Assembly: GCA_021734255.1 (NCBI GenBank)
Contig: JAIPJM010000011.1
Coordinates: forward strand, 1 to 64,000
Direction: 5' to 3'
Length of the DNA stretch: 64,000 nt
DNA from: Fidelibacterota bacterium
Lineage (GTDB): Bacteria > Fidelibacterota > UBA8477 > JABMPR01
This document shows, piece by piece, positions 17,109-35,281 of the stretch (positions are counted from its first letter, which is position 1; each line of letters opens with the position of its first letter). A program made the position numbers and the translations under genes. The notes beneath the pieces are model-generated. The model had not been told where the DNA came from and did not search any database. It was given only the letters and a program-made list of their open reading frames with translations.

Positions 17109-17187
17109 TATTTTGTATTTATAAATACTGTTTTGTGTAGTGTAGATATTAGATAATTTTTTGTTTAACATGAAAAAGGGGGAGTAC

Positions 17188-17745: not shown

Positions 17746-17752
17746 AACCATT

Positions 17753-18769
17753 ATGAGACAGACTCTCAACGCATTCTTGATCTGGTCCTTACTGGTTGGG
17801 ATTTCGTTTGCCCAGGATGTGGTAGCTGATATCGATTATCCTGAATTGATCAAGATCGACGAGCTCTCGAATATCTTTCACCCCGTTGATTTTGCCCATG
17901 GCTTGCATGCGCGCATGACAGTCATGGGGGATGGCTGTGCCACTTGCCACCATCACGCTGAAGACGATATCTATGAGCCTTGCTCTGAATGTCACCTGGC
18001 CGAAGATCCAGACGCGTCTATGGCAATGCCCACGCTAAACGGTGCTTACCACCGGAATTGCCTGAATTGCCACCAGGATTGGGTGGATGATGATGTGTGT
18101 CAGACCTGTCACATCAAACGTCGCTTCACCTTTAGTGCAAGGAAGCCACTGGACGAGACGGATATCCTGGCGTACGAACATCAGGAAATCCAAGTTCCGG
18201 AGATCGTCAATTTCGTACCACCTGAAAGTGATGAAAAACCGGTAGTGTTTCATCACAGAGAGCATACAGAGCTTTATCGCTATGATTGCGCAACCTGTCA
18301 CAGAAAGACCAACTGTAGTAAGTGTCATCAATTCGTGCCACATGGAAAAGGTGTGGTTTCATCTTTGGCTCACCACCATGACCCCTGCAGTTCCTGCCAC
18401 GAAACTGAAAAGGAAGACCAGTGTGCGGTCTGCCACACAGACAGTCCTTCTAAAGGATTCGTACACGCGGTTACAGGCTTCCCTTTGAAGTCTTTTCATA
18501 CTGCTCTGGAATGCAGCCAATGTCATGGCAAGCTATCACCGATCAAAGCGTTGGATCCTGACTGTCTGCAATGTCATGATAACTTTGAAGTCGGGATGTT
18601 CGACCATTCTGTGACTGGTCTCACGCTCAATGAATATCATGAAGAGATTGATTGTTATGAGTGCCATATGGACGACAAGTATGATGTGGCGCCTGCCTGT
18701 TGGGAATGTCACGATGAGGACATAAGCTTTCCGGATCAGATCCCGGGAACACGAACAGATAACAACTAA
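17753..18769 (+). CDS. Twelve-haem periplasmic cytochrome c (class III-like modules)
   Basis: The 338-residue protein has a signal peptide (ending near ISFAQDV) and twelve CXXCH motifs: CATCH, CSECH, CLNCH, CQTCH, CATCH, CSKCH, CSSCH, CAVCH, CSQCH, CLQCH, CYECH and CWECH. The N-terminal third has extra histidines placed as in cytochrome c3 (CATCHHHAEDD). The C-terminal third repeats a HxxTGFPLKSFH/ALECSQCH unit. It has no membrane segment and probably shuttles electrons between the membrane-bound partner encoded next and periplasmic acceptors. Confidence 0.9.
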   Translation: MRQTLNAFLIWSLLVGISFAQDVVADIDYPELIKIDELSNIFHPVDFAHGLHARMTVMGDGCATCHHHAEDDIYEPCSECHLAEDPDASMAMPTLNGAYHRNCLNCHQDWVDDDVCQTCHIKRRFTFSARKPLDETDILAYEHQEIQVPEIVNFVPPESDEKPVVFHHREHTELYRYDCATCHRKTNCSKCHQFVPHGKGVVSSLAHHHDPCSSCHETEKEDQCAVCHTDSPSKGFVHAVTGFPLKSFHTALECSQCHGKLSPIKALDPDCLQCHDNFEVGMFDHSVTGLTLNEYHEEIDCYECHMDDKYDVAPACWECHDEDISFPDQIPGTRTDNN

Positions 18770-18797
18770 ATAATTGCAAGGAAGAGGTTCCACTCCT

Positions 18798-21069: not shown

Positions 21070-21477
21070 TTACTTCACCCCTTTGTCATACAGGAAAGCG
21101 GTATAAGCAATATCCATAGTTAGGATATGATTCAGCAACCAACCAGTCAAAAAGCTTGATAATTCTTCAACGTTGACAGATGATTTGGCATCAAGTTCTC
21201 TTTTGAATGTTTCCAATTCCCCGAGCAGTTTCAAGTGTTCTCGGTAGTGGTCATCTAAACCAGGAAAGTTGTGTTTTTTCATAACTTGTTCTTCAGCTCG
21301 AAAATGATCTTTCGTATGATCAATAAGGTTGTTGATTTTGTCTACGATGGTAGCTTGATCCTGGGATTCTTCATTAGCCACAAGAAGATCATTCACCATA
21401 TCAATCAGCAATTTATGATCATCGTCAAATTTCTTTATTCCGACATTAAACTGCTTATTCCAAATAATTTTGTCCAC
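21070..21477 (-). CDS. Bacteriohaemerythrin
   Basis: The 135-residue protein shows the di-iron ligands of haemerythrin: His in FDDDHKLLIDMVN (about 21), His in DHTKDHFRAEEQVM (about 57) with Glu just after (61), the pair in HYREHLKLL (about 76/80), and His plus Asp in LLNHILTMDIAY (about 121-126). The family reversibly binds O2 and may deliver or sense oxygen or iron. It lies alone between two convergent cytochrome operons, each closed by a terminator, which suggests a link to oxygen protection of the respiratory system. Confidence 0.93.
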   Translation of the reverse strand: MDKIIWNKQFNVGIKKFDDDHKLLIDMVNDLLVANEESQDQATIVDKINNLIDHTKDHFRAEEQVMKKHNFPGLDDHYREHLKLLGELETFKRELDAKSSVNVEELSSFLTGWLLNHILTMDIAYTAFLYDKGVK

Positions 21478-21687: not shown

Positions 21688-23301
21688 TTAGTAATACTGA
21701 CCCGGATGCACCTTACCGTGACACATCAAGGTACAGGTACCATGACCCGGCTCGGTCTGTGAAACCTCAAGAATCCCATTCACTGGCTGAATAAATGGTG
21801 CATTCAAGTCCATGAGTCCTGGATACTCCACACTGCCGTGTGGGTTGTGACAGGCAGAACAGGCATAGCCTGCTTCTTCGATATGTAGCTTGTGGTATTT
21901 GAAGCCACTTCCCTGGACCACACGCCCTTGAACGTGACACTGAAAGCACAGCTCGCTTTCCTCAGGTTGGGCAAAGGGCTGCTCTGCATACGCCTGCTTC
22001 AAGATATGTGGTAGATCAGATCCATGTGGCCCCTGCGCTCCCAGGGGATCATCATTCCCGTGACAATCTGTACACTTGATCAGGGATTGTTCGCTCCATT
22101 CAATTTTCAGGCTCTGTACATAGGGATTATTGCCAGGCGCTTCGATGGGATGGAAACTCATATTCGTCTTTGCAAATAGCTGACCTACGTTACGCCCGAA
22201 CATGGCAGATTGATTCATGCCATGACATTTATAACAGGTCTCATACTCGTAATCGACAATAGCCTTGGTGAACCCTTCATTATCTACACCTGAAACGAAG
22301 ACCTGAGACCCGTCCAGGAAGGGACCATTATTCTGATCAGACGCGGCGTGGGGATTATGACAATCACTACAGGTCACGCCTCGTTCAGCCCCCAAACCAC
22401 GACTCCAGGCATCCATGCTCTCCGGCATTTCCCTGCTGGAATTCCAGGAGATGGGATGAATAAATGGTTTCTCAAACACGTTTTCCAGATCTGCATTGCT
22501 GGCAACTTCGTCCATATCGTCTTTACTGCCATCATGGCAGCTCAGACAAACGGTGGTTTCTTCAGCTGCGAGTAAATTTGTAGATGCAGGTACCCCATGA
22601 ATGTCATGACAATGGGCACATCCCAGATTCTTCACATCCCTAAAACGAGGGTCTGCAGGATTACCATGAGCAGATAGCTCCCAGTTTGCCATCTGATGAC
22701 ATTCTACACAAAGGCTGGAGCCCTCGTTGGACATCCGCAAGAAACTCCCCTGCTCGTTATTGTGGGGGTCGTGACAGGTAGCACAGCTGATCCTGGAATT
22801 CTCTTCCAGCCTGAGCTCACTGTCCTCTGAGGGTGCTCGTGTCTCAGTATCGCCGTTTTCAAAAGCAAAGAGGTGCAAATGCAGGTTAGGTACAGATTCA
22901 CTCCCCGCTTCCAGCAGTGAGACCTGCCTGTCCTTCAATTCTTCTTTATGTGGAAATCCCCTGGAGACACTCCCATCGTGGCAGAACAAACAACTTCGGC
23001 TGATATTGTCAGCAGGAAACAGGTGATGCTTTTCGAGTTCAACATGCTTATCGACGTCAAAGACCCTGACAAATTCCTTCCGGTACCACAGGGGTTCAAC
23101 TGCTGTCATCTTTGATGGAATATGACAGACGCGGCAAAGCGTAAAATCCTGAAGCAGGCTGTCCTCACCCACGACAGCGCGAGTGCCGACCAGGTTGTGG
23201 GGTGTAAATGCGATCTTACTCTTGTTCTCCAGGTCAGCACCTGCCTGGGCAAAACAACCAGTAGTGACAACCAGGATCATGAAAAAATGTTTTAGTCTCA
23301 T
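21688..23301 (-). CDS. Twelve-haem secreted cytochrome c
   Basis: The 537-residue protein has a signal peptide (MRLKHFFMILVVTTGCFAQA) and eleven CXXCH motifs plus one CTLMCH (CX3CH) near the C-terminus. Several motifs have the form CATCHDPHN or CSDCHNPHA, typical of doubled-CXXCH cytochromes. It is the last gene of the large operon. Its ATG overlaps the TGA of the barrel gene by four bases, so translation is coupled. By analogy with porin-cytochrome conduits it could be the periplasmic or cell-surface cytochrome lodged in that barrel. Confidence 0.9.
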   Translation of the reverse strand: MRLKHFFMILVVTTGCFAQAGADLENKSKIAFTPHNLVGTRAVVGEDSLLQDFTLCRVCHIPSKMTAVEPLWYRKEFVRVFDVDKHVELEKHHLFPADNISRSCLFCHDGSVSRGFPHKEELKDRQVSLLEAGSESVPNLHLHLFAFENGDTETRAPSEDSELRLEENSRISCATCHDPHNNEQGSFLRMSNEGSSLCVECHQMANWELSAHGNPADPRFRDVKNLGCAHCHDIHGVPASTNLLAAEETTVCLSCHDGSKDDMDEVASNADLENVFEKPFIHPISWNSSREMPESMDAWSRGLGAERGVTCSDCHNPHAASDQNNGPFLDGSQVFVSGVDNEGFTKAIVDYEYETCYKCHGMNQSAMFGRNVGQLFAKTNMSFHPIEAPGNNPYVQSLKIEWSEQSLIKCTDCHGNDDPLGAQGPHGSDLPHILKQAYAEQPFAQPEESELCFQCHVQGRVVQGSGFKYHKLHIEEAGYACSACHNPHGSVEYPGLMDLNAPFIQPVNGILEVSQTEPGHGTCTLMCHGKVHPGQYY

Positions 23302-24902
23302 ATCTGCCTCACAAACCGCAGCCAGACACTTGTACCCTGTTTTCCGATCGAATCCAGTGCTCCATAATTCCTTACCATCAGTGCATAGCTGGCCAGTGTG
23401 GTTTGGTATTTAAAGCTGGCATTTAACCAGAGATAGTCTTCATAAATATCAGATCCGAAACGGTAGGTATTGAAGAAGCTGAAATTAAGGTTTGGTGTGA
23501 GCTGATGATAGATCCTGCTGTTTACATTAAAGTGCAGATCGTTCTCAGGCTCTTCCAGTGCATAGATCGTTCCGAAGAATAAAGCGAGTTGGGTTCTTTG
23601 TCCGTAAGATTTAACAAAGACCTCCTCGATTAAGGCGTTTCTCAGCGTGTCAGTAGAGAAATCAAGGTCGGATCCAAAATGATTGTGTACCCTGATATTA
23701 TTTCCGAGACGCAGGGAACGCCTGGTAGAATATTCTGCAGTTAAGCGAAGCTTGTGACGAATATCGTAACGGGAATCATCTTCTTCATCGAAGCGCTGAA
23801 AGAATTCAGAGCTCAGATCATCCTGAACATAAAGGTCAAAGCGTTTTCCACTGATCAGGGGCATCATCTCGGCTGAATTCAATAAAACATCCAGTCCCTT
23901 GCCATAGCGGTAGGACTCTTTATAACCCACGTCCAAATTTCCGCGGACAAAACCCTTGTCGCTCACTTGCCAATGGGTGCTGGCGCCATACATCCTCCAG
24001 TGGTAGCTGTCCAGAGAATCAACTACACCCACACGGTTTCCCTTTGAAAGCAGGTCAAAACCAAGTGCCTGATTCAGGTAGAAGCGATAGCGGACATCAA
24101 AGTTCTGCCGCAGGAGGACCTGAGAGTTGTAGGCGACGTCACCTCGCTGGTAAGTTGCCCATATCTTCCGTCGCTCAGACAGATCATATCTCATACGATG
24201 AGACATTCGCCAAAAATCGTAGCCGTTTGCTTGAAAATAGGTGTTGCTGGCTGTCCAGTTCAACCGTTTCGACGGTCGACCATACCAATGAACCGAAGCC
24301 ATGGTGGTATTCTGGTCACCACGCGCATCACTACTCCAGGCATCTGTCTCACCTGTTACCCGGAATTGCATGCCTGCCATTTTCTGGTCCAGATGAAAAG
24401 AAACAAACTGCTGACCGATCTCGCTGGTGTCCCGCTGGCTGATCTGCTTGAATTTCATACCGGTGGAAACGGAGAAAGTTGTATTCTTTGAGACCAAAGC
24501 CCGAAGTTTCACACCATGAACATATTCTCGATAAGCCAGAGAATCTGTTCGGATCTGCATGGGGTTTCTCAGCCGTAAATATGAGAACATGGCCAGACCC
24601 AGTTTTGAAGAGGGTCGAATGTTGGTGCGCACCCCATATTCTGGACTTACCGATGTGTAATTGCTGCCTGAATTACCTCTCAGCACACCACCCAGATTCA
24701 GGGTATAGTCAAATTTTTGATGATCGCCTCGAATTCCCCAGGAGATCCTTTCCTGATGAATAAAACGTCCTGATTCTGTACTCAGGGTATCGAATTCGTA
24801 GCCAGCGCTACCCTCTATGAAGCCCGTCTGCTCCACAGGTGTTGCCAGCAGACATGCTGCCAGCATGAGCACCAGGACTATGTGTAATTTTACCCCCATC
24901 AT
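23298..24902 (-). CDS. Outer-membrane beta-barrel protein, candidate conduit porin
   Basis: The 534-residue protein begins with a signal peptide (MMGVKLHIVLVLMLAACLLA). The rest is a succession of amphipathic beta strands with aromatic girdles (for example FDYTLNLGGVL, WIATYQRGDVAYN-like stretches, LNASFKYQTTLASYALMV) and no haem motif. Size and position between two multihaem genes match the porin of MtrB/OmbB-like conduits, but no direct sequence similarity is evident to me. It overlaps its neighbours by 4 bases on both sides. The last residues (WLRFVRQI) lack the usual terminal Phe. Confidence 0.75.
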   Translation of the reverse strand: MMGVKLHIVLVLMLAACLLATPVEQTGFIEGSAGYEFDTLSTESGRFIHQERISWGIRGDHQKFDYTLNLGGVLRGNSGSNYTSVSPEYGVRTNIRPSSKLGLAMFSYLRLRNPMQIRTDSLAYREYVHGVKLRALVSKNTTFSVSTGMKFKQISQRDTSEIGQQFVSFHLDQKMAGMQFRVTGETDAWSSDARGDQNTTMASVHWYGRPSKRLNWTASNTYFQANGYDFWRMSHRMRYDLSERRKIWATYQRGDVAYNSQVLLRQNFDVRYRFYLNQALGFDLLSKGNRVGVVDSLDSYHWRMYGASTHWQVSDKGFVRGNLDVGYKESYRYGKGLDVLLNSAEMMPLISGKRFDLYVQDDLSSEFFQRFDEEDDSRYDIRHKLRLTAEYSTRRSLRLGNNIRVHNHFGSDLDFSTDTLRNALIEEVFVKSYGQRTQLALFFGTIYALEEPENDLHFNVNSRIYHQLTPNLNFSFFNTYRFGSDIYEDYLWLNASFKYQTTLASYALMVRNYGALDSIGKQGTSVWLRFVRQI

Positions 24903-25912
24903 TCCCCCTGTGCGCGATAACGAAATATCTGGACCCGACTATTGAACTGATCCATGATGTATAGCTGGTCTTTGGCATCGAACGTCAGACTTCCGGGTAA
25001 AAGAAACTCACCCTTCGCTTTGCCGATCTCTCCAAAAAAGTACAGGAGAGCCCCATTCTGATCAAATATTTGCACATTCCCGAAAGCGGCGTCCGAAATG
25101 AAGATATAGCCGTCTGAGGAAATAGCCAGACCCTTTGGATTTGAAAAACTGCCCGGTACCCGATCATACCCACCGAAACCTGTTTCATAGGTATAATCCG
25201 AGTTAAATACTTCTACTCTCCTGGACAGACCATCAAGAACAATAATATGCCCATCTGCCGAAAAGTCCACAGCCATTGGAGAACCAAGTAACTGGTCGCC
25301 GGTCCGTTTGTGAACCAGTTTCCCTGTTACCTGCCCCTCAGTATTGATGGACACCACATGATGGTTCGGGGTATCCACAATAAAGAGCTCATTATTAACT
25401 GGATTGACTTTGAGTTGACCGGGACGCCTGACATCTCTGACCTCCAGCACATCCAGATATTCATACGTTTTGCTAAATCGACAGATCGTTCCTGCGACAC
25501 CATCAGATACCAGGATCTCGTCATTCCAGACCACAATCCCGGCTGGAGCCTGTAGCTCTTGACCACCAAAGGATGCGATGTGGTCGTAGCGGTCTCCCTG
25601 CATCTGGAACACCAGCACTTTTCCTGCATCGGCGTCAGCCACATAGAAGCGGCCATCTCCATCTAGTGCCAGGGCCACTGGTCTCATGAGCATGTCAACA
25701 GTACGCGCTCCAAAAAGCATGGTTTTTACTCTGGGAAACAGACCATCGTGCTCTGTGGACCCGCCCCTCAACACTTTTTCAAGGGTCAGAAAGGGTTGAT
25801 TTGCCTCGGCTGGAAAATGCATCTCCTCTTCCAGTAATGCTTTACTGGCACATCCCGTCACCAGGCTTGTGATCAGAATGAGCGCAATCGATTTACTCCA
25901 TAAGGTTTTCAC
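24899..25912 (-). CDS. NHL-repeat beta-propeller lipoprotein
   Basis: The 337-residue protein has a lipoprotein signal with lipobox LVTGC (Cys about 21). About six repeats of the NHL type follow (DGDGRFYVADADAGKVLVFQ; VWNDEILVSDGVAGTICRFS; NPVNNELFIVDTPNHHVVSI; SADGHIIVLDGLSRRVEVFN; SSDGYIFISDAAFGNVQIFD; DAKDQLYIMDQFNSRVQIFR), giving a six-bladed propeller. Such propellers act as protein-interaction scaffolds. It starts exactly at the last base of the upstream 18-haem gene's stop and overlaps the barrel gene by four bases, implying stoichiometric expression with the cytochromes. Confidence 0.88.
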   Translation of the reverse strand: MKTLWSKSIALILITSLVTGCASKALLEEEMHFPAEANQPFLTLEKVLRGGSTEHDGLFPRVKTMLFGARTVDMLMRPVALALDGDGRFYVADADAGKVLVFQMQGDRYDHIASFGGQELQAPAGIVVWNDEILVSDGVAGTICRFSKTYEYLDVLEVRDVRRPGQLKVNPVNNELFIVDTPNHHVVSINTEGQVTGKLVHKRTGDQLLGSPMAVDFSADGHIIVLDGLSRRVEVFNSDYTYETGFGGYDRVPGSFSNPKGLAISSDGYIFISDAAFGNVQIFDQNGALLYFFGEIGKAKGEFLLPGSLTFDAKDQLYIMDQFNSRVQIFRYRAQGE

Positions 25913-27987
25913 TAGTATCGCTTCCGTTTAACTGGGTCATGATAGTAATTGAACTTCCATAGCGTCGCAGGGCCGTGACAGTCGATACATAAGGTTTTAT
26001 GGCTGGGGTTTCTCAGAAATGATGTTAGATAACTTCCCTCATTATTGTCCCCCGATTCTTCTACCAAATTGTCTTCAAAAGACCACTTATGCGGATCATG
26101 ACAGGTGAAACAATCAATAAAGCCAAAAACTTTTTCAGGTTGAGTCTCGCTAAACACTGGAAAATCGATCCAGTCTCCAGTCCCCCGAACATTTTTGGCA
26201 ACAGTGCCATAGTCATGGGGATGATCCCATGCCTCTGGAAGTTTATTTTCTGCACTTTTTCCTTCCTGATGGCAGGAGAAACAGAAATGTTCATTATACG
26301 AGTTGCCCATAGAAGCTTCCCATGACCGCAGTAAGCCATGTTCCGCCCGGGCATTATGGGATGAGTGACAGAATGAGCAGGCACTGTGATTTGCATCGCC
26401 CAGGTCATGATCTGTACCGATCACGTCCTTTTGCTCACTATGACATTCGATACACAGATTCGGTTCTGGCCAATTTTTGATACGTAGGAATGAATTCCGA
26501 TCATTTCCATCCAGGTCTGCCACTCGGGAAGTATTCTCAGCACTTCCCCATAAATGAGGATCATGACAGGTAATACAGGTAATGGTTCCATCGAATCCAT
26601 GAAGTACATCACTGGCAGCTTTGAGGTCGCCACCCATGGGGTGATCAAGACCGCCCACTGTGGTCGGGTAATGCGCTTCTGAATGGCAGAATTCGCATAG
26701 CTCTCTGGTAACATCCTCTCCAACCTCGGCCGTATTTGTCTTATAGCCAAAATCACCATGGGTTTCATGACAGGCAGAACACTGGCCTCTAAATGCGTCG
26801 GTATTTCTGAAATGCTGTTGGAAACCTTCCCTGACCACACTGTGATCAGAAGCGGTGATCTGGGCTTTGGCTGGATGGCATGATGTACAGAGCTGTCCCT
26901 CAGCATCATCGGGAAGTCTCAGAAAGGAGGTGTACTCTGTCCCCTCCTCATTTGCCTCAGTGACGGCATGACGTTTGGAAAATTCCCACTGATGGGGGTC
27001 ATGACAACTCAGACATCTGATCTCTTCACCCGCAGTGATATTCAGTGCTGGTACTGACGCTGGCACTTTCTTTCCATTGACGACATGGCCAGCATGCGGA
27101 TATGCCTTCGCTTGCGCCAGACCTTCTTCGTTGTGGCAACCGAGACAATAACTATTCTCACCATCCTCAGGCGTGAGCTCAACCGCCCACATAAATTTAC
27201 CATTTCCGCCATGGCTGGTATGGCAGGTAGCACAAGCATCCTGCTCGCCGAAGCTTGGTCCCAATGCACCTGATGTACTTTTAAAGCTTGTTGCCAGGTC
27301 ATGGTCGGTCAATTCAATATTGAAATAAGATTCATGGCAGGATGAGCATAATTCACTTCGATCGGATCCTGTTACCCCGATGGTGGACTGCTCCCCGTGA
27401 ATAGGATGGCAGGTCATACACTCAATGGTATTGTTAGCCCCAAAAAAGGTCCCAGCAGGCATTTTGTGATCAGCATTGACTGGTATGTGTATGGGATGGT
27501 TAAAATGCTTTTCAGCCTGATCAGCGTGACAGCTGATACATAGATCGGAGTTCTTGACCTCTTTGCGAATGAAAGGTGCTAAGCCACCAGGGACAATTGG
27601 TTTCAAGGAGTGAGGCGTATGGCAGGTACCGCAATAGATCTTCTTATTCTTATCCAGAGGAAGATCTCTGATCTTGATCTTAGTCATATCCATACCCAGG
27701 GCATGATTATTCGACCTGAAGACCTCTCTGGAATCCATGACAGTACCATCATGACAACTTGCACAGGCTTTCTTCGCAGGAATGTGGGAAGGAATTCCTT
27801 CGATCTGGATCGGTGCATCCAGCTTTGGGATCAATGAATTCTCGGCTTGTGCATTCTCGTGCCAGGTCACATGGCACACCACACAATCAAAACTGATATT
27901 TCTACTCTTACTCCTGGGTTGACCGAACAAGCCCTGAACCAGGACAAGCAGGAAAAGAAAAAAGATTATATGTCTCTGCTTATTCAT
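25912..27987 (-). CDS. Eighteen-haem secreted cytochrome c
   Basis: The 691-residue protein has a signal peptide (ends near VQGLFGQPR) and eighteen CXXCH motifs, starting CVVCHVTWHE and CASCHDGTVM and ending CIDCHGPAT. Many are in paired, doubled-CXXCH arrangement (CGTCHTPHS, CATCHTSHG, CLSCHDPHQ, CITCHDPHL, CFTCHDPHK) with one haem per about 38 residues. No lipobox or membrane helix is seen. It is the haem-richest protein in the window and the best candidate for the outermost, surface-exposed electron carrier. NHL propeller genes flank it on both sides. Confidence 0.92.
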   Translation of the reverse strand: MNKQRHIIFFLFLLVLVQGLFGQPRSKSRNISFDCVVCHVTWHENAQAENSLIPKLDAPIQIEGIPSHIPAKKACASCHDGTVMDSREVFRSNNHALGMDMTKIKIRDLPLDKNKKIYCGTCHTPHSLKPIVPGGLAPFIRKEVKNSDLCISCHADQAEKHFNHPIHIPVNADHKMPAGTFFGANNTIECMTCHPIHGEQSTIGVTGSDRSELCSSCHESYFNIELTDHDLATSFKSTSGALGPSFGEQDACATCHTSHGGNGKFMWAVELTPEDGENSYCLGCHNEEGLAQAKAYPHAGHVVNGKKVPASVPALNITAGEEIRCLSCHDPHQWEFSKRHAVTEANEEGTEYTSFLRLPDDAEGQLCTSCHPAKAQITASDHSVVREGFQQHFRNTDAFRGQCSACHETHGDFGYKTNTAEVGEDVTRELCEFCHSEAHYPTTVGGLDHPMGGDLKAASDVLHGFDGTITCITCHDPHLWGSAENTSRVADLDGNDRNSFLRIKNWPEPNLCIECHSEQKDVIGTDHDLGDANHSACSFCHSSHNARAEHGLLRSWEASMGNSYNEHFCFSCHQEGKSAENKLPEAWDHPHDYGTVAKNVRGTGDWIDFPVFSETQPEKVFGFIDCFTCHDPHKWSFEDNLVEESGDNNEGSYLTSFLRNPSHKTLCIDCHGPATLWKFNYYHDPVKRKRY

Positions 27988-28861
27988 CTCTTAGCCTGTA
28001 GACACTCACCCTATCATTGGATGACTCGACCACCCAGATCCTGTTGTTTTTATCCAGCCAGATGCCCATTGGTGCCTTCAACCTTAATTCTTTACCATCC
28101 ACTGCAGCGATCCCCAGGTATTTACCGGACAGAGAAAACAGTTGAAGCACGCCTGTAAAACTGTCTGAGATCCAGACCTGCTGTTTTGTATTCATTGCCA
28201 CACCCTTGGGTCGAATGATCTGTCCTCTTTGCGCTCCCGGTTTGGCGATCATTTGCGGGAAGCGCCCTGAGGGAGAATACGAGAGTACACGTCGATTAAG
28301 AATATCTGGAATGATCAGGCGGTTTTCTGGTCCCGCCGCTAACAGACCAGGATTGATGAACTCTCCCAAACCGTTGCCCCGGTTTCCCCAGGTCTTGCTG
28401 ATCTTTCCATTTGAGTCTACCAGTATGATCCGATGATTGGCACGGTCACTTACTGCAATTTGATTGTTAATACCAACCAGATCAACGGGTTCGGTCCATG
28501 CTTCCAGGGGAATGACCTGGTTGATCCTGCCATTTTTCCCCAGTTCCAGAATTCGAGACCTTGGTGTATCAGCGATCCATATCTTGTTATCAATACAGGC
28601 GATCCCAACAGCTTTGTAAATGGTCCCGCGATTAGGGCGAATACTTCTTACCTGGCCAGCAGCATTGATCTCAACTACACGGTCATTCATGCCATCCAGG
28701 ACAAAAACATCACCCCGTTCATTTCCACAGATATCAGTGGGATAATAAAAACCCGCCTCAACGCTTCTTTCAAATTGAACAGTGATATTCTGACCAAATG
28801 ATATCTGGACCAGAAAGAGGAGCTGTATTAAAAAGAGGCGTGATCTTATGGCGCTAGTCAA
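27980..28861 (-). CDS. NHL-repeat beta-propeller secreted protein
   Basis: The 293-residue protein has a signal peptide (ends near ISFGQNITV) and about five to six NHL blades: NERGDVFVLDGMNDRVVEIN, CIDNKIWIADTPRSRILELG, INNQIAVSDRANHRIILVD, GPENRLIIPDILNRRVLSYS, NTKQQVWISDSFTGVLQLFS and DKNNRIWVVESSNDRVSVYR. It lacks the lipobox of the companion propeller at 24899-25912. Its stop overlaps the start of the 18-haem gene by 8 bases. The two propellers may form an assembly scaffold around that cytochrome. Confidence 0.87.
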   Translation of the reverse strand: MTSAIRSRLFLIQLLFLVQISFGQNITVQFERSVEAGFYYPTDICGNERGDVFVLDGMNDRVVEINAAGQVRSIRPNRGTIYKAVGIACIDNKIWIADTPRSRILELGKNGRINQVIPLEAWTEPVDLVGINNQIAVSDRANHRIILVDSNGKISKTWGNRGNGLGEFINPGLLAAGPENRLIIPDILNRRVLSYSPSGRFPQMIAKPGAQRGQIIRPKGVAMNTKQQVWISDSFTGVLQLFSLSGKYLGIAAVDGKELRLKAPMGIWLDKNNRIWVVESSNDRVSVYRLRDE

Positions 28862-28884
28862 CTTGAAGGTCCACTCATATCCAA

Positions 28885-29682
28885 TTATTCGAACACGGCT
28901 GGAAAATAAAACAGTTCGTATTTCTCTACCATGCCGACAACAGCTGAATGCTGGAGTTCGTTCAGACGTTCACCTTCAAAACCAAGCGCTGTCATTGGAA
29001 ACTCAGATGATTCGCTGTGACAATCCGAACAGGTCTTAGGATCTTGTCCCACCATTGCTTCAGCTTCCTGTCGGATCTTCTCCTTATTGACTGTTTCGCC
29101 ATTCAGGACCGCTTCACGATAGGCCTCGTACATGGGTGTGTTGTAGGGCGTATATACGCGCGTATTAAGTGAGCCATCCACAACAAGTGGCGTGATCTTG
29201 GAAATGAAATTCTCTGCTCCAGAGACATCATCATCACCGATCTTGACCAGGCCGTAGGGACCGTTCCGTGTCAAGGAATTATCCACACCAAAGTCATACC
29301 AGCGATACGTTAATTTTCGACCAGGTTCCTGCTCCATGTGACACACCATGCAAGTCATGAACCGCGAGTGTTGATTGTAGAATGCCCGGGTACGTTTTTC
29401 TTTTTTGTGGGGCCAGATCGAATGACATGTCAGACAGTTCTCCTGTTCATCCATTGGCAGAAAATGCCGCTCACTGGTCTGATGAAAGTGATCTGATCGA
29501 TTATCAAAATTTGTGTAGTAGTTATTCAGCATTTCAACGTAATCAGGGAATTCGCCAGCATCCATGGCGACCTGTTCAACTTCCGTATCATGGGAGACCG
29601 CATTCCCTACGATCCAAACTGAGAGGACAATGCCAATGACCAGAGCCCCAAGGCCATACAGGTATTTAAAGATATTTTTCAT
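28885..29682 (-). CDS. Membrane-anchored trihaem cytochrome c
   Basis: The 265-residue protein has one uncleaved N-terminal helix (YLYGLGALVIGIVLSVWIVGNAV, about 8-30) and three CXXCH motifs: CLTCHSIWP (about 83), CMVCHMEQE (about 111) and CSDCHSESS (about 219). The anchor and sparse haems recall NapC/NrfH-like quinol oxidases, but the third and fourth haem spacing of that family is absent. It follows the b-type cytochrome gene with a four-base ATGA overlap, so it is probably a subunit of the same inner-membrane complex. Confidence 0.8.
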   Translation of the reverse strand: MKNIFKYLYGLGALVIGIVLSVWIVGNAVSHDTEVEQVAMDAGEFPDYVEMLNNYYTNFDNRSDHFHQTSERHFLPMDEQENCLTCHSIWPHKKEKRTRAFYNQHSRFMTCMVCHMEQEPGRKLTYRWYDFGVDNSLTRNGPYGLVKIGDDDVSGAENFISKITPLVVDGSLNTRVYTPYNTPMYEAYREAVLNGETVNKEKIRQEAEAMVGQDPKTCSDCHSESSEFPMTALGFEGERLNELQHSAVVGMVEKYELFYFPAVFE

Positions 29683-30371
29683 TTCTCGGCCTTCTCCTGC
29701 GCTTTGATCTCTTCTAATTCCAGTGGATGTTCATGCTCCATCTCTTCTTCAGTAAGGGTCCCCTTGTACCAGACCTTATTTGCGGGCCAGACACGGGGGT
29801 TGAAGTGAACATTGTAGAAATGCCAGATAGCGATGGCTAAAAAAGCAAGCAAGGCTTCATCACTGTGGGCAATATATGCGATCTGGATAAAAACACCGGG
29901 CAGCAGCCGGCTGAATTCGACTGGAAACCATAGAATGAGACCACTACCCGCCATAATGAACATACCCCAGAACACAGCCCAATAATCAAATTTCTCGATA
30001 TATGAGAATTTATGGAACTTGGGTCGTTCATCTGAAAGGAAGAGGAAATAGCGCAAGTTTGTCTTGATATCTCTGGCATCCTTCATGGTCGGGAGTAAAT
30101 ACATCTGTGATAATGGTGCTCTCTTCACGATCAGATTATAGAGTACATATAAAACGTGATACACGAAATTGATTATCATAATGGCAGCAGCAATGCGATG
30201 TATAAAGCGGGCATTTTCTATACCGCCCATAAATGCAAAGACCCATCCGCCAAACACACTATCGGGAAATTTGATGGGAAAACCGGTAAACACCAGGATG
30301 ATAAAGGGGACGAACATGAAAACATGCTGCAGCCTCTGATTCAAATTGAATCGTAAAAACTCTCTGCTCAT
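29679..30371 (-). CDS. b-type cytochrome membrane subunit (formate dehydrogenase gamma / HydC-like)
   Basis: The 230-residue integral membrane protein has four to five helices and His residues for haem b: NQRLQHVFMFVPFIILVFTG, RFIHRIAAAIMIINFVYHVLY and AIAIWHFYNVHF. It aligns along its whole length with the membrane part of the 18798-20726 fusion, sharing FIHR/VIHR, DYWAVFWG/EYWAGLWG and IWHFYN/IWHLYN. It overlaps the upstream haem gene by four bases. Together they form the split version of the CbcL-like quinol oxidase. The tail (residues 200-230) is highly charged and cytosolic. Confidence 0.87.
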   Translation of the reverse strand: MSREFLRFNLNQRLQHVFMFVPFIILVFTGFPIKFPDSVFGGWVFAFMGGIENARFIHRIAAAIMIINFVYHVLYVLYNLIVKRAPLSQMYLLPTMKDARDIKTNLRYFLFLSDERPKFHKFSYIEKFDYWAVFWGMFIMAGSGLILWFPVEFSRLLPGVFIQIAYIAHSDEALLAFLAIAIWHFYNVHFNPRVWPANKVWYKGTLTEEEMEHEHPLELEEIKAQEKAEK

Positions 30372-31384
30372 CTTTTCCTCCGGATTGTATAGGCGTCAAC
30401 AGCCCAGCGACCGAAATCAAGGAGTATGTGAGCCAGTAGAAAAGCCATGGTACCTGCTGTCAGGAGTATAAATCCCCATTCTACGAAAAATGGAATTGGA
30501 TTGTCTGCCGGTGTCGGTTCAGAATGGATCGCAGCAGTAGAAAATCTTGCCGTCGCGTTGCTGTGACAATAGGTGTTCGCACTACAAGTCATCTGGATAT
30601 TATTTGCATGAATGCTCGAATTGGGATCAGTGGCCGGTAGATTCAGGTGGTTCCGATGACAATCCACACAGTTCGCAACATTATCAAGTCCTCTTTTCAA
30701 AGCTTTGCCGTGAAAATGATTTTCATATCCAGCCACCTGGGTCAGATTGACATCAAATTCCTGCATCCTGCTCTGATCAGCATGGCAGGAGGAACAGAGT
30801 TCAACGATCCGAATAGAAGCTGACGCCGAGCGGTGCTCTGAATGTGAGCTGACGTGGAGGATCACACCGGCAAGCCCTTCACCCTCATGACAGCGCAGAC
30901 AGTGATCACTATGTTTAGAGAGATCATCCTCCAGAATTTCATTCCTGAACGAATTATCATGGCAATACTTACAATCCGGCTTCTTTGCGTTCTGTTCATC
31001 AGAATGCTTGGGGTTTTGACCATGGGAGCTGATGGCGTGTGAGTCCCGTTGATCAGTGTGGCTATACCCGGTCAATGCGAACGGCTTGGTAATGTGGCAG
31101 GCTTTGCCGCAATCAACCTTCTGCACCTCTTCTGGATGAGGAAATTCGTTTATATCTGTATGGCAGTCCCTACAGATCACATTCCGGTGCGTTGAATGTT
31201 CGTAGTCACCGGCAATAACTTCAAAATTTCGCATTCCCCCATCAGTACTACTGACACCAAGCATGGGCAGGTCATGGCACAGGTAGCAGTTCTCAGCATC
31301 AGCCTGTTGTTGCCCCAAAAGGGTGGTGGTCAGCAGCATGCCAAGCAGGGATAAGCGGGTCGATCTATAGATCATGGCAAGCAT
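30368..31384 (-). CDS. Membrane-anchored multihaem cytochrome c, partner of the b-type subunit
   Basis: The 338-residue protein has a signal peptide, six CXXCH motifs (CYLCH, CRDCH, CKYCH, CLRCH, CSSCH, CVDCH) and two unusual ones: CGKACH (CX3CH) and CSANTYCH (CX5CH). A C-terminal helix (WGFILLTAGTMAFLLAHILLDF, about 302-323) anchors it. The stretch LPATDPNSSIHANNIQMTC...AAIHSE matches LPSTDSTSTIHPNNLATTC...VTIHGT in the 18798-20726 fusion, so the two are homologous and the CX5CH site derives from a normal CXXCH by insertion. Two in-frame ATGs (31384 and 31375) could start it. It overlaps the upstream gene by 20 bases. Confidence 0.85.
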   Translation of the reverse strand: MLAMIYRSTRLSLLGMLLTTTLLGQQQADAENCYLCHDLPMLGVSSTDGGMRNFEVIAGDYEHSTHRNVICRDCHTDINEFPHPEEVQKVDCGKACHITKPFALTGYSHTDQRDSHAISSHGQNPKHSDEQNAKKPDCKYCHDNSFRNEILEDDLSKHSDHCLRCHEGEGLAGVILHVSSHSEHRSASASIRIVELCSSCHADQSRMQEFDVNLTQVAGYENHFHGKALKRGLDNVANCVDCHRNHLNLPATDPNSSIHANNIQMTCSANTYCHSNATARFSTAAIHSEPTPADNPIPFFVEWGFILLTAGTMAFLLAHILLDFGRWAVDAYTIRRKR

Positions 31385-32225
31385 AGCAAAGGTTCTCTTT
31401 TTCTAATCGTAGATAGCGTGAATTTTCTCCCTCTCCAACATAGACCACCTGATCGTCGGCAAGTGTACCACGGTTGTGTGTGTAGTGGCAGGTATTGCAC
31501 TGGATCTGGTTATCCGCAGAGAGTGGTAGGTCGATCTTATACTTCTTTTTGGTCTCTCTAAAGCGTTTGATCGTGACTTTCCTGGACAATTCAATGTTCT
31601 TACCCTGATGGTTCTCCTCATGGTTGTGCAGGAAATGGCATTTGTTACAGGTGGCTGCCACACCCAGATGCATTTCATTGGCGATGGTCGGATGATCTGT
31701 CTTGCTGGGTACCTTGGTATGGCACTGCAGGCACGTCGATTTGTCTGTACTTCCATCAGCCAGGGTCTGGATATGTGGATTGACACCTTTGTAGGTGTTC
31801 TGGTCGTGACATTGGTAACAAAAATCCAATTCTACCTTAAAAGGTCCCCCGCGTAAAAATGTTTGGTTCGCTCTGTCAATGTTGCATGCAACCTGATGAC
31901 AGGTAGTACAGCTGAATTCATGTTGGGAATCCAGCTTAAAATTTTTGGGAATTGAGATATTTGCGCTCGTCAGATCCAAGTTGTCCAATTGATGGATCTT
32001 TGTATTTACCTCAGAACGAGAATGACATTCCGTACATGAGGATGCTAAGAAATTAGAGGTGCTCGGTGCTCCACCGGCCTCATGGCAGACTGTGCAATCG
32101 TCTCCACCGTGGGGATTGATCTTCCCGGGGTAGGTGAACTGGGCACAGCATACGCCTAGCAACAGAAGGGAGCCGAATAAAATTCGGCTCCCCCTCAGAA
32201 TTCTATATGAATAAATATTATTCAT
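31365..32225 (-). CDS. Octahaem secreted cytochrome c
   Basis: The 286-residue protein has a signal peptide (ending near LLLLGVCCAQF) and eight CXXCH motifs: CTVCH, CTECH, CTTCH, CYQCH, CLQCH, CNKCH, CNTCH and CYACH. The last motif sits at the extreme C-terminus (CYACHDL). A lysine-rich stretch between haems 6 and 7 (KVTIKRFRETKKKYKIDL) is unusual and may be a docking surface. No CXXCK active-site haem is present, so it is unlikely to be a nitrite reductase. It is a probable periplasmic carrier between the inner-membrane complex and the outer conduit. Confidence 0.88.
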   Translation of the reverse strand: MNNIYSYRILRGSRILFGSLLLLGVCCAQFTYPGKINPHGGDDCTVCHEAGGAPSTSNFLASSCTECHSRSEVNTKIHQLDNLDLTSANISIPKNFKLDSQHEFSCTTCHQVACNIDRANQTFLRGGPFKVELDFCYQCHDQNTYKGVNPHIQTLADGSTDKSTCLQCHTKVPSKTDHPTIANEMHLGVAATCNKCHFLHNHEENHQGKNIELSRKVTIKRFRETKKKYKIDLPLSADNQIQCNTCHYTHNRGTLADDQVVYVGEGENSRYLRLEKENLCYACHDL

Positions 32226-32244
32226 TTAGTGCTTCTTATCAGCC

Positions 32245-33201
32245 TTACTCCATTGGAAAATCTGAAGTCAATGCAGCCCACTGGTGAGCTTGAAGGTTAT
32301 CATAAATCATGCTGTTTGCACCAAACTTAAGGCTGAGAGCATCATATCCAAGTGCTGTCAACCAGGCTGTCATCATGGATGATGTCTGACCGGTCCAGCA
32401 ATAGGTAACAATCTGCTGTGCAGGATCCAGAATATCAAGACCATCATTGGCAATTGTCAGTGTACCAGGTGTAACCTGATGCGCACCGGCAATATGACCA
32501 TAATCTGAGTTATCTGTAGCACCCCAGTAGTTGATGATCTGATAGTTAGCAGGTGCATCAAGCACGGTAGAAGCTGAAACGCCTTTGAATCCAGCAAGAA
32601 TGGCATCTACCCGCTCTGCTAGAATAGCAGCACCATCGGTGAGATCAGTGTTGATCACAGGATCTTCATTGTCTGAGAGAAGCGCTGCAGGATCTGCAGG
32701 GAATGTCCAATTACTGCTGGTTGTTCCGGCATTGCCAACATTGCCTGACCATGAGTCAAACTGGCCAGCCCAACCGCTCATACCCCATTTAACAGATTTT
32801 GCATCTGTGTAACCGCTAAGACGCAACGCAACAACTGCGTGAGCAGCACTCTGACCTGAATAACAGGCAACGAGCACAGGCAGATCAGATGTGTTCTTAG
32901 CTTCAACGGTTGTAACGACATCAGCATAGGCACAGTTTACTGCACCAGGAATATGACCTTCTGCATACTTCTCAGCAGAACGAATATCCAGAATAAAAAA
33001 GTCGGCTTCGTTTCCACTGATAGCTGAAGCAGTTGTGATCCAATCTGCTACAACGGTGGTTGCATCGTAGTCATTCTCGACCATGTACTTCGACAGGGTC
33101 TCGAATGCTGTTGCATCTTCTTCATCATCAGTACTCTCACAGCTTACCATAAATCCCAGGGCAAGCACCAGTACCAATACTAGTCTCCAATCAAGTTTCA
33201 T
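32245..33201 (-). CDS. Tandem-rhodanese lipoprotein
   Basis: The 318-residue protein has a lipoprotein signal with lipobox near GFMVSC (Cys 21), an acidic linker, and two rhodanese domains. The first has FFILDIRSAEKYAEGHIPGAVN and active-site loop CYSGQSA (about 113-119). The second has YQIINYWGATDNSDYGHIAGAH and loop CWTGQTS (about 263-269). Both cysteines are present, so both domains may be active as sulfur or persulfide carriers. Rhodanese-like lipoproteins also occur in Geobacter ext-type electron-transfer loci (from memory), which supports a functional link. It lies inside the cytochrome operon, 19 bases before the octahaem gene. Confidence 0.88.
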   Translation of the reverse strand: MKLDWRLVLVLVLALGFMVSCESTDDEEDATAFETLSKYMVENDYDATTVVADWITTASAISGNEADFFILDIRSAEKYAEGHIPGAVNCAYADVVTTVEAKNTSDLPVLVACYSGQSAAHAVVALRLSGYTDAKSVKWGMSGWAGQFDSWSGNVGNAGTTSSNWTFPADPAALLSDNEDPVINTDLTDGAAILAERVDAILAGFKGVSASTVLDAPANYQIINYWGATDNSDYGHIAGAHQVTPGTLTIANDGLDILDPAQQIVTYCWTGQTSSMMTAWLTALGYDALSLKFGANSMIYDNLQAHQWAALTSDFPME

Positions 33202-33236
33202 TTCCCCTCCTTTAGGTTGTTTTGAACTTGCATTAC

Positions 33237-34820
33237 TTAGTTATGACTTAAATGACATCCTGAGGAAAAACATGGGTCATCCCCCAGGCTGGTATTCTTG
33301 TTTGCTTCGATCTCAGCACTGAGATCGTCACCGGTGATATCTCTTTCCATATCACTATCTTTTAAATAATAATCGCTATTACCATACCCAGCGTGATAAT
33401 GGCAATTATCAGAACAATTATCGCTGGTATATATCTGACCGGTTGTATCGGCCCAGCTTGCATCCACTAAAGTTCTGTCTGTCCATCTCTGGATGTTATG
33501 GGGGCTGGTGTATTTCCAGGTTTCCATATTGGTGGCACCTGCTGCGAAATTATCAACCGACCATTCAGGAATATTCCAGTTTTTAAAGGCATCAGGTGAG
33601 ACCGGAATATGGCGAATCGCTATCCAGGCTGAGTTGCCATGTGGATTGTCTGTCTCTCCATAGACTGGGTTTCGACCGATCTTGAACTGTGGGTAAACCC
33701 GGTAACCACCAGGCCCATGGGAAGAATAGTCTGCCGCTTCTACATATTCCTCAGTCCACTCACCTGCATGACAGGTATTACAATTATTGTATTGTTGTGA
33801 GTGACAGACATAACAGGCGAGGTCAGCGCCATCCGTTGCATCAGCGTTTGGCCAGTGCTGGGCATGAAAGGCGTTATCATCACTATCAACCTGATGACAG
33901 TCCACGCACTGGGGCAGATCGGTCACATGATAGCGTGAGATGTAATCTGCGTCTGTGGCACCATCGCCATGAAAATCCTCCTGGTGGCAATCCAGGCAGG
34001 TATATCCAAAATCATTATGAACGTCTGGTTTATTTCCCGGTACCCGTTCCTGGTTTGCATTCCAGTCATCACCGACTCGGGATCCATGACAGGCAGTGCA
34101 GACATTCTCTTCACTGGGTGTGGCGATAAATTGATGACTATATCCAACTCGCTGTTCAAGGAAACCTTTACCGGCGGTATGGGGGCGGCTCACATGGCAC
34201 TGTCCACACGTGGTATGGCAACCACTGCAATCCTTGGTAAAACCCTCTTGAATCTCGACAGGGCATTCTTCGAAGGAGTCATACCCGTTTCTCATGGCCA
34301 CATGGGCTTTCTCGCCCCAGAGGTTACTGTGAATGCTGGTCTCATTCCTGCGAACGATATCACCATGGCAAAGACTTCCGCTACAGCCATCTTTACCAAT
34401 AGCTGAGGGATCACGTGTCATTTCAGTGTGCGCTGCTCGATAAGCTGAGATATCATCATCAGCATCGACCTCAGCTAGACCACCATGACATCCAGCACAA
34501 CCGATGCTGGCATGGGTAGGATCAATATCCGAGTAGGACTCTATTCCTCTGGTTGCATTTAATCTGATCAAAACCTTATCTGTAAGCGTCAACGGCGCCG
34601 CTCCACCGCCTCAGCCAGGCGCTGCATGAGATTCTTCCGGAAGTTCGGAGAGCTCATCCAGGGCAGCAATAATTCCAGAGATGGCCGATCTGTTCGTGTG
34701 GCACCCCTCGCAGGTATAATCAACCAGATCACCGTCCTGGGGAGTGATAGAATCACAATTCCAGAAGAAGGAAATGGCAAATACTAAAGCAAGGATCTGA
34801 ATTCGTCTGTTTAATCGCAT
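33237..34820 (-). CDS. Twelve-haem lipoprotein cytochrome c interrupted by an in-frame TGA
   Basis: An ATG at 34820 starts MRLNRRIQILALVFAISFFWNC, a lipoprotein-type signal, then the first haem site CEGCH. The frame stops at TGA 34613-34611 and continues unbroken in the same frame to 33237. The second part (from TTG 34592) has no export signal of its own but carries eleven more haem motifs: eight CXXCH plus CSGSLCH, CSDNCH and CFSSGCH. A secreted cytochrome can only result if the TGA is read through. The stop lies in a Gly-rich linker (APG-stop-GGGAAP), suggesting GGA to TGA. Its start overlaps the merR gene by ten bases. Confidence 0.75.
34611..34613 (-). other. In-frame TGA codon within the multihaem gene
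   Basis: The TGA follows CCT GGC and precedes GGC GGT GGA GCG GCG CCG. CGCCT-GGCTG-AGGCG forms a small hairpin that contains the stop, and GGCG/CGCC just downstream can form another stem with a nine-base loop. It may be a nonsense mutation, a sequencing error or, much less likely, a selenocysteine codon. Confidence 0.7.
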
Positions 34821-35281
34821 TTAAATTTCACCGATAGTATTTCTTTGAGGTTATCTATGTTCAAAACCTGCTGGTAAACCACACAGGTCCTGCAATTATC
34901 TCCATGGTCCCGGCAGGGGGTGTTTTCAAAATCCCAGCAGGGTTTACAGCTTTTCGTCCCAGCAGGACAGGTCGTATAATCCTCCACGCAGCATGGCTTC
35001 ATTTCATGACAGGGCAGAAGTGATAACAGATACCTGATACCTGCAAAATTCAGTTTATTCTCATGGATCTGCTTCTGGATACAGGTGATCCAATCAACAT
35101 CCGATTGTGTGAAGCGTCTATGACCAGAATTTAGTTTGTATGGCACCAATAAGCCCTCACGCTCATACAGGCGTAGGGTCTCCACCGAAAGGTCCAGTTT
35201 CTGGGCAACTTCATGGGGTGTGAACAATGCTTCGTTCGAGAGACATTCGGGTTGTTCGGGACTATGTTGGGTCAATGCCAT
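34811..35281 (-). CDS. MerR-family regulator with cysteine-rich C-terminus
   Basis: The 156-residue protein has a MerR helix-turn-helix (about 19-88: FTPHEVAQKLDLSVETLRLYEREGLLVPYKLNSGHRRFTQSDVDWITCIQ). A C-terminal region holds about ten cysteines (LLPCHEMKPCCVEDYTTC, KSCKPC, TPC, DNCRTC, KFKC). Most MerR proteins carry two or three metal-binding Cys, so this one probably senses metal, redox state or an iron-sulfur cluster. It is the first gene of the twelve-gene minus-strand operon and overlaps the next by ten bases, so it likely controls the whole locus. Confidence 0.88.
   Translation of the reverse strand: MALTQHSPEQPECLSNEALFTPHEVAQKLDLSVETLRLYEREGLLVPYKLNSGHRRFTQSDVDWITCIQKQIHENKLNFAGIRYLLSLLPCHEMKPCCVEDYTTCPAGTKSCKPCWDFENTPCRDHGDNCRTCVVYQQVLNIDNLKEILSVKFKCD

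What the first reader, a model, noticed from the sequence alone, without database searches (positions are those of the whole stretch)
21688..35281. Twelve-gene operon predicted to wire the quinone pool to the cell exterior
A MerR-type regulator gene is followed by eleven genes that overlap or nearly touch: six multihaem cytochromes with about 61 haem sites, a b-type subunit, a tandem rhodanese, two NHL propellers and an outer-membrane barrel. The order (inner-membrane complex, periplasmic carriers, then barrel flanked by 18- and 12-haem cytochromes) follows the expected electron path. The set does not match a conduit I can name from Geobacter or Shewanella.
Basis: partly seen in the sequence, partly recalled or inferred. 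Interest (0 to 1): 0.75.

Follow-up and report, generated by a model that had tools for sequence, protein, structure and literature searches.

The report
Selenocysteine cytochrome paired with a rhodanese
The operon's first cytochrome gene contains a 'stop' codon that relatives in several bacterial phyla keep at the same place and that almost certainly encodes selenium-containing selenocysteine, beside a sulfur-handling rhodanese gene, which points to a selenium-dependent outer-membrane electron-transfer system that probably handles sulfur.

Summary
The twelve-gene operon is real and placed as stated, with about 60 haem motifs. That UGA is kept at the same column in 61 of 81 aligned rows; 11 have Cys, 8 another residue, 1 is truncated. 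A SECIS-like hairpin follows it in 57 of 60 UGA loci, against 2 of 11 Cys, 0 of 8 other and 3.7% of background codons. The genome has tRNA-Sec, SelA, SelB and SelD. A rhodanese gene lies within 250 bases of all 68 testable Sec/Cys cytochromes (58 Sec, 10 Cys; several copies damaged) and of 0 of 6 with another residue. The nearest known system is the Geobacter ext cluster, but this cytochrome matches ExtKL nowhere in our scans. Best explanation: a new selenoprotein cytochrome family that exchanges electrons with sulfane sulfur on the rhodanese, wired through an outer-membrane conduit. Sec is strongly supported, the partnership well supported, the conduit plausible, the substrate inferred. No structure could be predicted.

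The parts
34811..35281 (-). MerR-family regulator with a Cys-rich C-terminus
   Evidence: PF13411. Six C-terminal Cys kept in 29-30 of 30 aligned sequences. The ORF directly upstream of the cytochrome is this family in 28 of 76 loci that have an upstream ORF.
33237..34820 (-). Selenocysteine-containing multihaem cytochrome lipoprotein (527 aa, 12 haem motifs, 11 of them conserved)
   Evidence: Both sides of the UGA evolve as coding sequence.
34611..34613 (-). In-frame UGA read as selenocysteine (U70, motif PG-U-GGG)
   Evidence: Column state in 81 rows: U 61 (window included), C 11, other 8, truncated 1 (recounted).
34585..34599 (-). SECIS-like hairpin 11 nt after the UGA (stem GGCGCC, loop GTT, stem GACGCT; 5 of 6 pairs)
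   Evidence: family-wide.
32245..33201 (-). Tandem rhodanese lipoprotein with an acidic run after the lipobox Cys
   Evidence: PF00581 twice. Within 250 bases of all 68 testable U/C cytochromes. Acidic run in 33 of the 43 rhodanese ORFs in which a lipobox was found.
31365..32225 (-). 8-haem cytochrome with an N-terminal signal
   Evidence: 8 CXXCH; PF14537, PF14522.
30368..31384 (-). 7-haem cytochrome with a C-terminal TM helix
   Evidence: In some relatives one longer ORF matches both this and the b-type model.
29679..30371 (-). b-type (b561/FdhC-like) subunit, probably quinone-linked
   Evidence: PF01292 50.7 bits. His16, 58, 72, 169 and 184 kept in 29-32 of 32.
28885..29682 (-). 3-haem cytochrome with an N-terminal TM helix
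   Evidence: weak NapC/NirT match below cut-off.
27980..28861 (-). NHL propeller 1
   Evidence: PF01436.
25912..27987 (-). 18-haem cytochrome
   Evidence: 18 CXXCH; PF09699 115 bits.
24899..25912 (-). NHL propeller 2, with a lipobox-like N-terminus
   Evidence: PF01436; N-terminus.
23298..24902 (-). Putative outer-membrane beta-barrel
   Evidence: No Pfam or NCBIfam match. 24-31 candidate strands by a crude script. Homologues in 12 of 80 loci.
21688..23301 (-). 12-haem cytochrome, DmsE/MtrA- and GSU2203-like
   Evidence: TIGR03508 83 bits (cut-off 192.2), GSU2203 family 61 bits (cut-off 325).

Best explanation
The operon encodes an electron-transfer chain whose working end is a selenocysteine-bearing multihaem cytochrome lipoprotein paired with a tandem-rhodanese lipoprotein. 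UGA at codon 70 is decoded as Sec (strongly supported, about 0.93). The Sec sits on a Gly-rich loop between haems 1 and 2, and its use depends on the rhodanese (well supported, about 0.85). The b-type subunit and membrane-anchored cytochromes would link the quinone pool to periplasmic carriers, and the barrel with the 18- and 12-haem cytochromes would carry electrons across the outer membrane (plausible, about 0.65). Most likely chemistry (inferred, about 0.4): the rhodanese captures sulfane sulfur (polysulfide, S0 or thiosulfate) as a persulfide, the Sec selenolate takes it as a selenosulfide, and two electrons through the haems release sulfide, or the reverse for sulfide oxidation.
For: One in-frame UGA, same column, in 61 of 81 rows, Cys in 11; no second in-frame UGA in any of the cytochrome cores. 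The haem site 5' of the UGA is kept in 80 of 81 and both sides evolve as coding sequence. Hairpin score at least 11 in 57 of 60 UGA loci, 2 of 11 Cys, 0 of 8 other, 3.7% of 32,624 background codons; at 13 or more 48 of 60, 2 of 11, 0 of 8 and 1.4%. At a fixed position 17 of 20 UGA rows have 5-6 of 6 pairs; 2000 synonymous-codon randomisations gave a mean of 2.5 and a maximum of 8 such rows. tRNA-Sec with TCA anticodon, SelA, SelB, and a SelD with its own in-frame TGA. Rhodanese next to 58 of 58 UGA and 10 of 10 Cys cytochromes, and 0 of 6 with another residue. Three Cys forms whose nearest kin carry UGA (L064, L108, L111) have damaged rhodanese genes. Tree: 4 of 4 independent contrasts on well-supported branches agree. 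MtrA-family decahaem gene upstream of the pair in L117.
Against: No protein-level proof of Sec. The sulfur chemistry is inferred from the rhodanese alone. The phylogenetically corrected contrast is small (sign test p 0.125). Damaged rhodanese genes are not confined to Cys forms: L090 (UGA) changes frame and L079 (UGA) has an ORF shorter than its matched span. Several Ignavibacteria-type loci have the pair without other multihaem genes nearby. G043 has a rhodanese homologue without the cytochrome. The window hairpin has one mismatched pair. G005 (UGA only in its second copy) and G011 have no tRNA-Sec match (87% and 72% complete). A KSB1 study reports selABD but no selC in its genomes (passage of PMC9012183), although L128, titled KSB1, has the UGA form. 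Barrel identity and width are not established.
Confidence: 0.6

Rival explanations
1. The operon is a selenite/tellurite (or other oxyanion) reduction system like that proposed for the Geobacter ext cluster; the Sec-cytochrome and rhodanese act on selenium or tellurium species.
For: The Geobacter ext cluster combines a rhodanese lipoprotein, a barrel and a predicted Sec-cytochrome, and loss of ExtI impairs selenite/tellurite reduction (passages of PMC5877670 and PMC6148476). 13 of 45 family members match the ExtM model weakly (best E 6.3e-7).
Against: None of 45 members matches the NCBIfam ExtKL model at E<=0.001. The ExtM scores shown are 20.5-26.2 bits against a cut-off of 800. No Rieske domain among the window operon's proteins scanned with Pfam.
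Confidence: 0.2
2. A metal-oxide or electrode conduit, in which Sec and rhodanese are accessory (for example protection or maturation).
For: Putative barrel plus 18- and 12-haem cytochromes in one operon; MtrA-family neighbour in L117.
Against: The pair is kept across phyla while the conduit parts differ or are absent; Sec/Cys and rhodanese are absent together in 6 of 6 testable loci.
Confidence: 0.25
3. Sec acts as a haem ligand or tunes electron transfer, and the rhodanese link is only operonic.
For: The Sec lies between two haem sites.
Against: Rhodanese absent in all 6 testable loci that lack Sec/Cys at this site; Gly-rich context.
Confidence: 0.08
4. The UGA is a real stop, a sequencing error or a pseudogene.
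For: A stop codon by table 11; single-MAG data for the window.
Against: Same UGA in 61 of 81 rows, hairpin, Cys homologues, Sec machinery.
Confidence: 0.02

Closest known systems
Geobacter extHIJKLMNOPQS cluster (ExtH rhodanese lipoprotein, ExtI barrel, ExtKL predicted Sec-cytochrome, ExtM 12-haem)
   Same: Rhodanese lipoprotein, outer-membrane barrel, predicted Sec-containing multihaem cytochrome, further multihaem cytochromes and a b-type subunit in one cluster (passages read).
   Different: Sec lies in another protein (11-12 haems, Sec at residue 70) that does not match ExtKL. Regulator is MerR here (TetR in L117), LysR in most ext clusters. NHL proteins and an 18-haem cytochrome are present, no Rieske domain found. 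Named hosts are mainly of the FCB group (FCB grouping recalled) rather than Desulfuromonadales.
MtrAB-type porin-cytochrome conduits
   Same: The 12-haem protein resembles the DmsE/MtrA family (83 bits); in L117 the decahaem neighbour passes the curated cut-off (209.8 versus 192.2).
   Different: In the window the match is below cut-off, the barrel matches no NCBIfam or Pfam model, and a Sec-cytochrome and a rhodanese stand where MtrC would be expected (MtrC role recalled).
CbcL-type and related inner-membrane quinone-cytochrome modules (recalled)
   Same: b561-type domain next to multihaem cytochromes.
   Different: In the window separate 7-haem, b-type and 3-haem genes.
Sud/Psr polysulfide respiration (recalled)
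   Same: A rhodanese-type carrier hands sulfur to a reductase; the proposed mechanism is analogous.
   Different: No molybdenum reductase among the operon's proteins; the proposed acceptor is Sec on a multihaem cytochrome.

Membership tests
Bacterial selenoprotein | In-frame UGA conserved with coding sequence on both sides | tested here: met
Bacterial selenoprotein | Cys in homologues at the Sec position | tested here: met
   11 of 81 rows.
Bacterial selenoprotein | SECIS-like hairpin shortly 3' of the UGA | tested here: met
   57 of 60 UGA loci; randomisation control. Threshold chosen after one search's scores had been seen.
Bacterial selenoprotein | Sec machinery in the genome | tested here: met
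   tRNA-Sec, SelA, SelB, SelD over curated cut-offs.
Bacterial selenoprotein | Selenium in the protein | not testable with these tools
   Needs mass spectrometry or labelling.
ExtKL (NF040886) | Match to the curated model | tested here: not met
   No match for the window protein at E<=1; not among the 11 families matched at E<=0.001 by 45 members.
ExtM (NF040943) | Match above the curated cut-off | tested here: not met
   Window protein: none. 13 of 45 members match weakly, best E 6.3e-7; scores shown 20.5-26.2 bits versus 800. Distant homology stays possible.
Geobacter-type ext conduit | Rhodanese lipoprotein plus Sec-cytochrome in one cluster | tested here: met
Geobacter-type ext conduit | ExtI-type barrel | tested here: inconclusive
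   The barrel has no family match; ExtI itself was not at hand.
MtrA/DmsE-family conduit | Decahaem protein over the TIGR03508 cut-off | tested here: not met
   Window 83 bits versus 192.2; met in L117.
Quinone-linked b561-type module | PF01292 domain with conserved His | tested here: met
   Quinone binding itself was not tested.

The most novel reading that the evidence does not exclude
A new, widespread class of sulfur-respiring (or sulfur-oxidising) outer-membrane electron conduit in which a selenocysteine on a multihaem cytochrome takes sulfane sulfur directly from a surface rhodanese, so that insoluble or polymeric sulfur can be used outside the cell without a molybdenum enzyme.
Probability: 0.3. 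Interest if true: 0.9.

Novelty: new variant of a known kind. Interest (0 to 1): 0.74.

Why it matters
Selenocysteine-containing multihaem cytochromes seem rare in print: in the passages that I saw, a 2026 review's table names ExtKL and a tetrathionate-reductase-family octahaem, plus the GSU2204 barrel-type protein (PMC13188914). This family is found in MAGs of several phyla, and its UGA hides the start of the gene from a standard ORF search. Its Sec/Cys residue and a rhodanese are present or absent together, which gives a direct, testable lead on how electron conduits might use extracellular sulfur or selenium, and makes the Sec/rhodanese pairing of the Geobacter ext cluster look like a general principle rather than an oddity.

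Tried and rejected
Tried without result: solved structures (four matches with E 0.048-0.98, none convincing), PHROGs, plasmid records. Geobacter's own ExtM, ExtKL and ExtH sequences could not be reached. A barrel strand count is too crude to set a pore width.

Literature searches (open-licence library only): 6 papers; 2; 4; 1; 15; 281 with two of three terms, 20 listed; 3; 65 with two of five terms, 15 listed; 4. Of ten papers I saw passages found by term, not whole texts: PMC5877670, PMC6148476, PMC13188914, PMC11976967, PMC10553843, PMC5317091, PMC6143742, PMC9012183, PMC12545173, PMC11475568 (no term found in the last). The others I saw as listings. In none of this did I see the family described.

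Rejected: stop codon, pseudogene or sequencing error (same UGA across phyla, hairpin, Cys homologues). Changed code: the four-base ATGA overlaps inside this operon use TGA as a stop. The TTG start at 34592: it overlaps the hairpin's loop.

Limits: the 80 public loci are the best 80 of 259 stretches, ranked by likeness to a UGA-bearing query, so UGA forms may be over-represented. L067 (5' end missing, state unknown, rhodanese present) was left out of the tree and of the rhodanese count. Five loci with under 600 bases downstream (L084, L095, L102, L118, L120) were left out of the rhodanese count. Three loci that the script scored as lacking an adjacent rhodanese have one by tblastn (L071 and L100 downstream, L132 upstream); the tree used that correction before it had been checked. 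The hairpin thresholds were set after one search's scores had been seen. In one search the three failures are the second copies L042-L044, whose hairpin is shifted. L132 has one TAA/TAG in its matched core. L099, L100 and L102 are near-identical proteins under three different phylum names, so some titles must be wrong. Of 18 stretches fetched, 14 lie on contigs of the same length as loci already examined; I analysed the other 4, of which L144 and L154 resemble L121 and L074. In one search some cytochrome 'lipoboxes' are false hits, so that count is only rough.
Full report
Observation. The window lies in G000:C16 of a 2.87-Mb, 59-contig genome. Its closest named relatives for the cytochrome are Candidatus Neomarinimicrobiota MAGs. 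The twelve genes stand as described, minus strand, 35281 to 21688, tightly packed, with 60 haem motifs. Families by Pfam: rhodanese twice, b561-type subunit, two NHL proteins, multihaem cytochromes, MerR. The barrel and the first cytochrome match no NCBIfam model at E<=1.

The ORF finder starts the first cytochrome at a TTG (34592), but the same frame continues upstream to an ATG at 34820, through a lipobox-like stretch, a first CXXCH and a single TGA. This ATG overlaps the MerR gene by 10 bases. Homologues occur in 23 of 60 genomes searched, the window's own included. Of 29 matched rows, 26 cover the position: 20 have UGA there (the window among them), one Cys, one His, one Asp, and three have a shortened loop.

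Wider set. A scan of public genomes found 259 stretches that encode relatives; the best 80 became loci. In an alignment with the window protein the column is U in 61 rows (window included), C in 11, another residue in 8 and a gap in one truncated row; no second in-frame UGA occurs in the matched cores. Eleven haem Cys columns are kept in at least 80 of 81 rows, including the haem 5' of the UGA. Record titles place UGA forms in Neomarinimicrobiota, Calditrichota, Krumholzibacteriota, Eiseniibacteriota and KSB1 bins and in bins without a phylum name or with doubtful ones (L099, L100 and L102 are near-identical under three phylum names); eight of the 11 Cys forms are one clade of Ignavibacteriota/Bacteroidota/Chlorobiota bins. 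A draw of 159 genomes of the phylum, own genus included, gave matches in 39; 34 of the 46 matched rows contain a TGA. One new row (L160) keeps the UGA in a different sequence context (GSTUGDAG), again beside a rhodanese.

Selenocysteine. The best hairpin starts 11-12 nt after the UGA in 44 of 60 loci; its loop is GTT in 33 and GGA in 16. With one scoring rule, 57 of 60 UGA loci reach 11, against 2 of 11 Cys forms (L064, L108, both with UGA-bearing kin nearby in the tree), 0 of 8 others and 3.7% of 32,624 background codons; at 13 the counts are 48, 2, 0 and 1.4%. At a fixed position, 17 of 20 UGA rows have 5 or 6 of 6 pairs; 2000 synonymous-codon randomisations gave a mean of 2.5 and a maximum of 8 such rows. 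Both sides of the UGA show purifying selection: median dN/dS 0.16 on the 5' side (66 of 78 pairs usable) and 0.07 on the 3' side (28 of 78 usable). The genome has tRNA-Sec with anticodon TCA, SelA (519.5 bits) and SelB (353 bits) with one gene between them, and SelD (374.5 bits) with its own in-frame TGA. TGA is an ordinary stop in the same operon (four-base ATGA overlaps), so this is not a changed code. tRNA-Sec was found at E<=1e-7 in 44 of 60 genomes, own included, and over the curated cut-off in 41; G005 (UGA only in its second copy) and G011 lack it in incomplete assemblies.

The rhodanese link. By simple ORF calling the next ORF downstream is a rhodanese in 59 of 76 loci; antisense ORFs hid others. 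A tblastn recount over all 80 loci finds a rhodanese gene on the same strand within 250 bases of 58 of 58 testable UGA forms (57 downstream, L132 upstream) and 10 of 10 Cys forms, and in 0 of 6 forms with another residue. Three Cys forms whose nearest kin carry UGA have damaged rhodanese genes: short remnants in L064 and L111, two frames in L108. Damage is not confined to them: L090 (UGA) changes frame and L079 (UGA) has an ORF shorter than its matched span. L091 and L092 are cut by the contig end. On a tree made without the Sec columns, U/C versus other needs at least 7 changes, and all four independent contrasts on well-supported branches agree, too few for significance (sign test p 0.125). 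Of the 60 genomes, 22 hold a rhodanese match; G043 has one but no cytochrome match. Most rhodaneses have two active-site-like Cys loops (CYSGQS/T, CWTGQT/H), some four or five. Of rhodanese ORFs with a lipobox, 33 of 43 have four or more acidic residues in the ten after the Cys, against 8 of 86 other ORFs. That such a stretch marks surface export in Bacteroidota is recalled, not tested.

Conduit. In the genus, MerR, Sec-cytochrome, rhodanese, 7-haem, b-type, 3-haem, NHL, 18-haem and barrel genes recur in order, with some genes missed by the ORF calling. In other Neomarinimicrobiota and Calditrichota loci the pair is often followed by a gene of about 400 aa without a clear family, possibly a barrel, and an 11/12-haem gene. 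In L117 it follows a decahaem gene of the DmsE/MtrA family (209.8 bits, cut-off 192.2), a gene of about 630 aa and a TetR regulator; L101, L103 and L119 have the same order, and the 630-aa gene has weak barrel-type matches in L101 and L119 but none in L117 and L103. Several Ignavibacteria-type loci have the pair without other multihaem genes nearby. So the pair is the shared core and conduits are recurrent partners.

Known systems. Geobacter's ext cluster encodes a rhodanese lipoprotein, a barrel and a predicted Sec-cytochrome, and loss of the barrel ExtI impairs selenite and tellurite reduction (passages of PMC5877670 and PMC6148476). A 2026 review lists ExtKL, the GSU2204 family and a tetrathionate-reductase-family octahaem among selenoproteins (passages of PMC13188914). 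The present family does not match ExtKL and matches ExtM only weakly in 13 of 45 members. It is therefore filed as a new selenoprotein family in a variant of that kind of system.

Mechanism. Shown at protein level: nothing. Strongly supported: Sec. Well supported: functional pairing with rhodanese. Plausible: quinone-to-surface wiring. Inferred: sulfane sulfur as substrate, from rhodanese chemistry and the Gly-rich loop.

Noticed in passing
window 17161-20726 (+): A c554-type cytochrome, a c3-type cytochrome and a fusion of 11 haem sites with a b561-type domain (CbcL-like arrangement, name recalled) lie on the other strand just beyond the operon's 3' end: a second quinone-cytochrome module.
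   Followed up: partly
window 21070-21477 (-): Hemerythrin-domain protein between the two cytochrome modules.
   Followed up: no
window 34811-35281 (-): MerR-type regulator with six near-invariant Cys in its C-terminal part, a possible metal or Fe-S sensor.
   Followed up: partly
L137 (G000:C35:44038-44961): SelD of the same genome has an in-frame TGA, so it is probably itself a selenoprotein.
   Followed up: no
L042, L043, L044 (also L132): A second, divergent Sec-cytochrome copy in three genomes of the genus (motif EGUGGS) with a shifted hairpin; rhodanese matches lie on the same contigs close by.
   Followed up: partly
L040, L041: A 7-haem paralogue without the Sec residue lies after the Sec-cytochrome and rhodanese in two genomes of the order.
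   Followed up: no
L070, L099, L101, L103, L104, L107, L114, L117, L119, L124, L126, L127, L129: Rhodanese genes with four or five active-site-like loops in one ORF instead of two.
   Followed up: partly
L134 (G043:C152): Rhodanese homologue without the cytochrome beside it.
   Followed up: partly
L090, L079: Rhodanese gene that changes frame (L090) or is interrupted relative to its matched span (L079) beside an intact UGA-form cytochrome; decay or sequencing error not distinguished.
   Followed up: no
window 55093-57687 (-): Large protein with a Por secretion-system C-terminal sorting domain.
   Followed up: no
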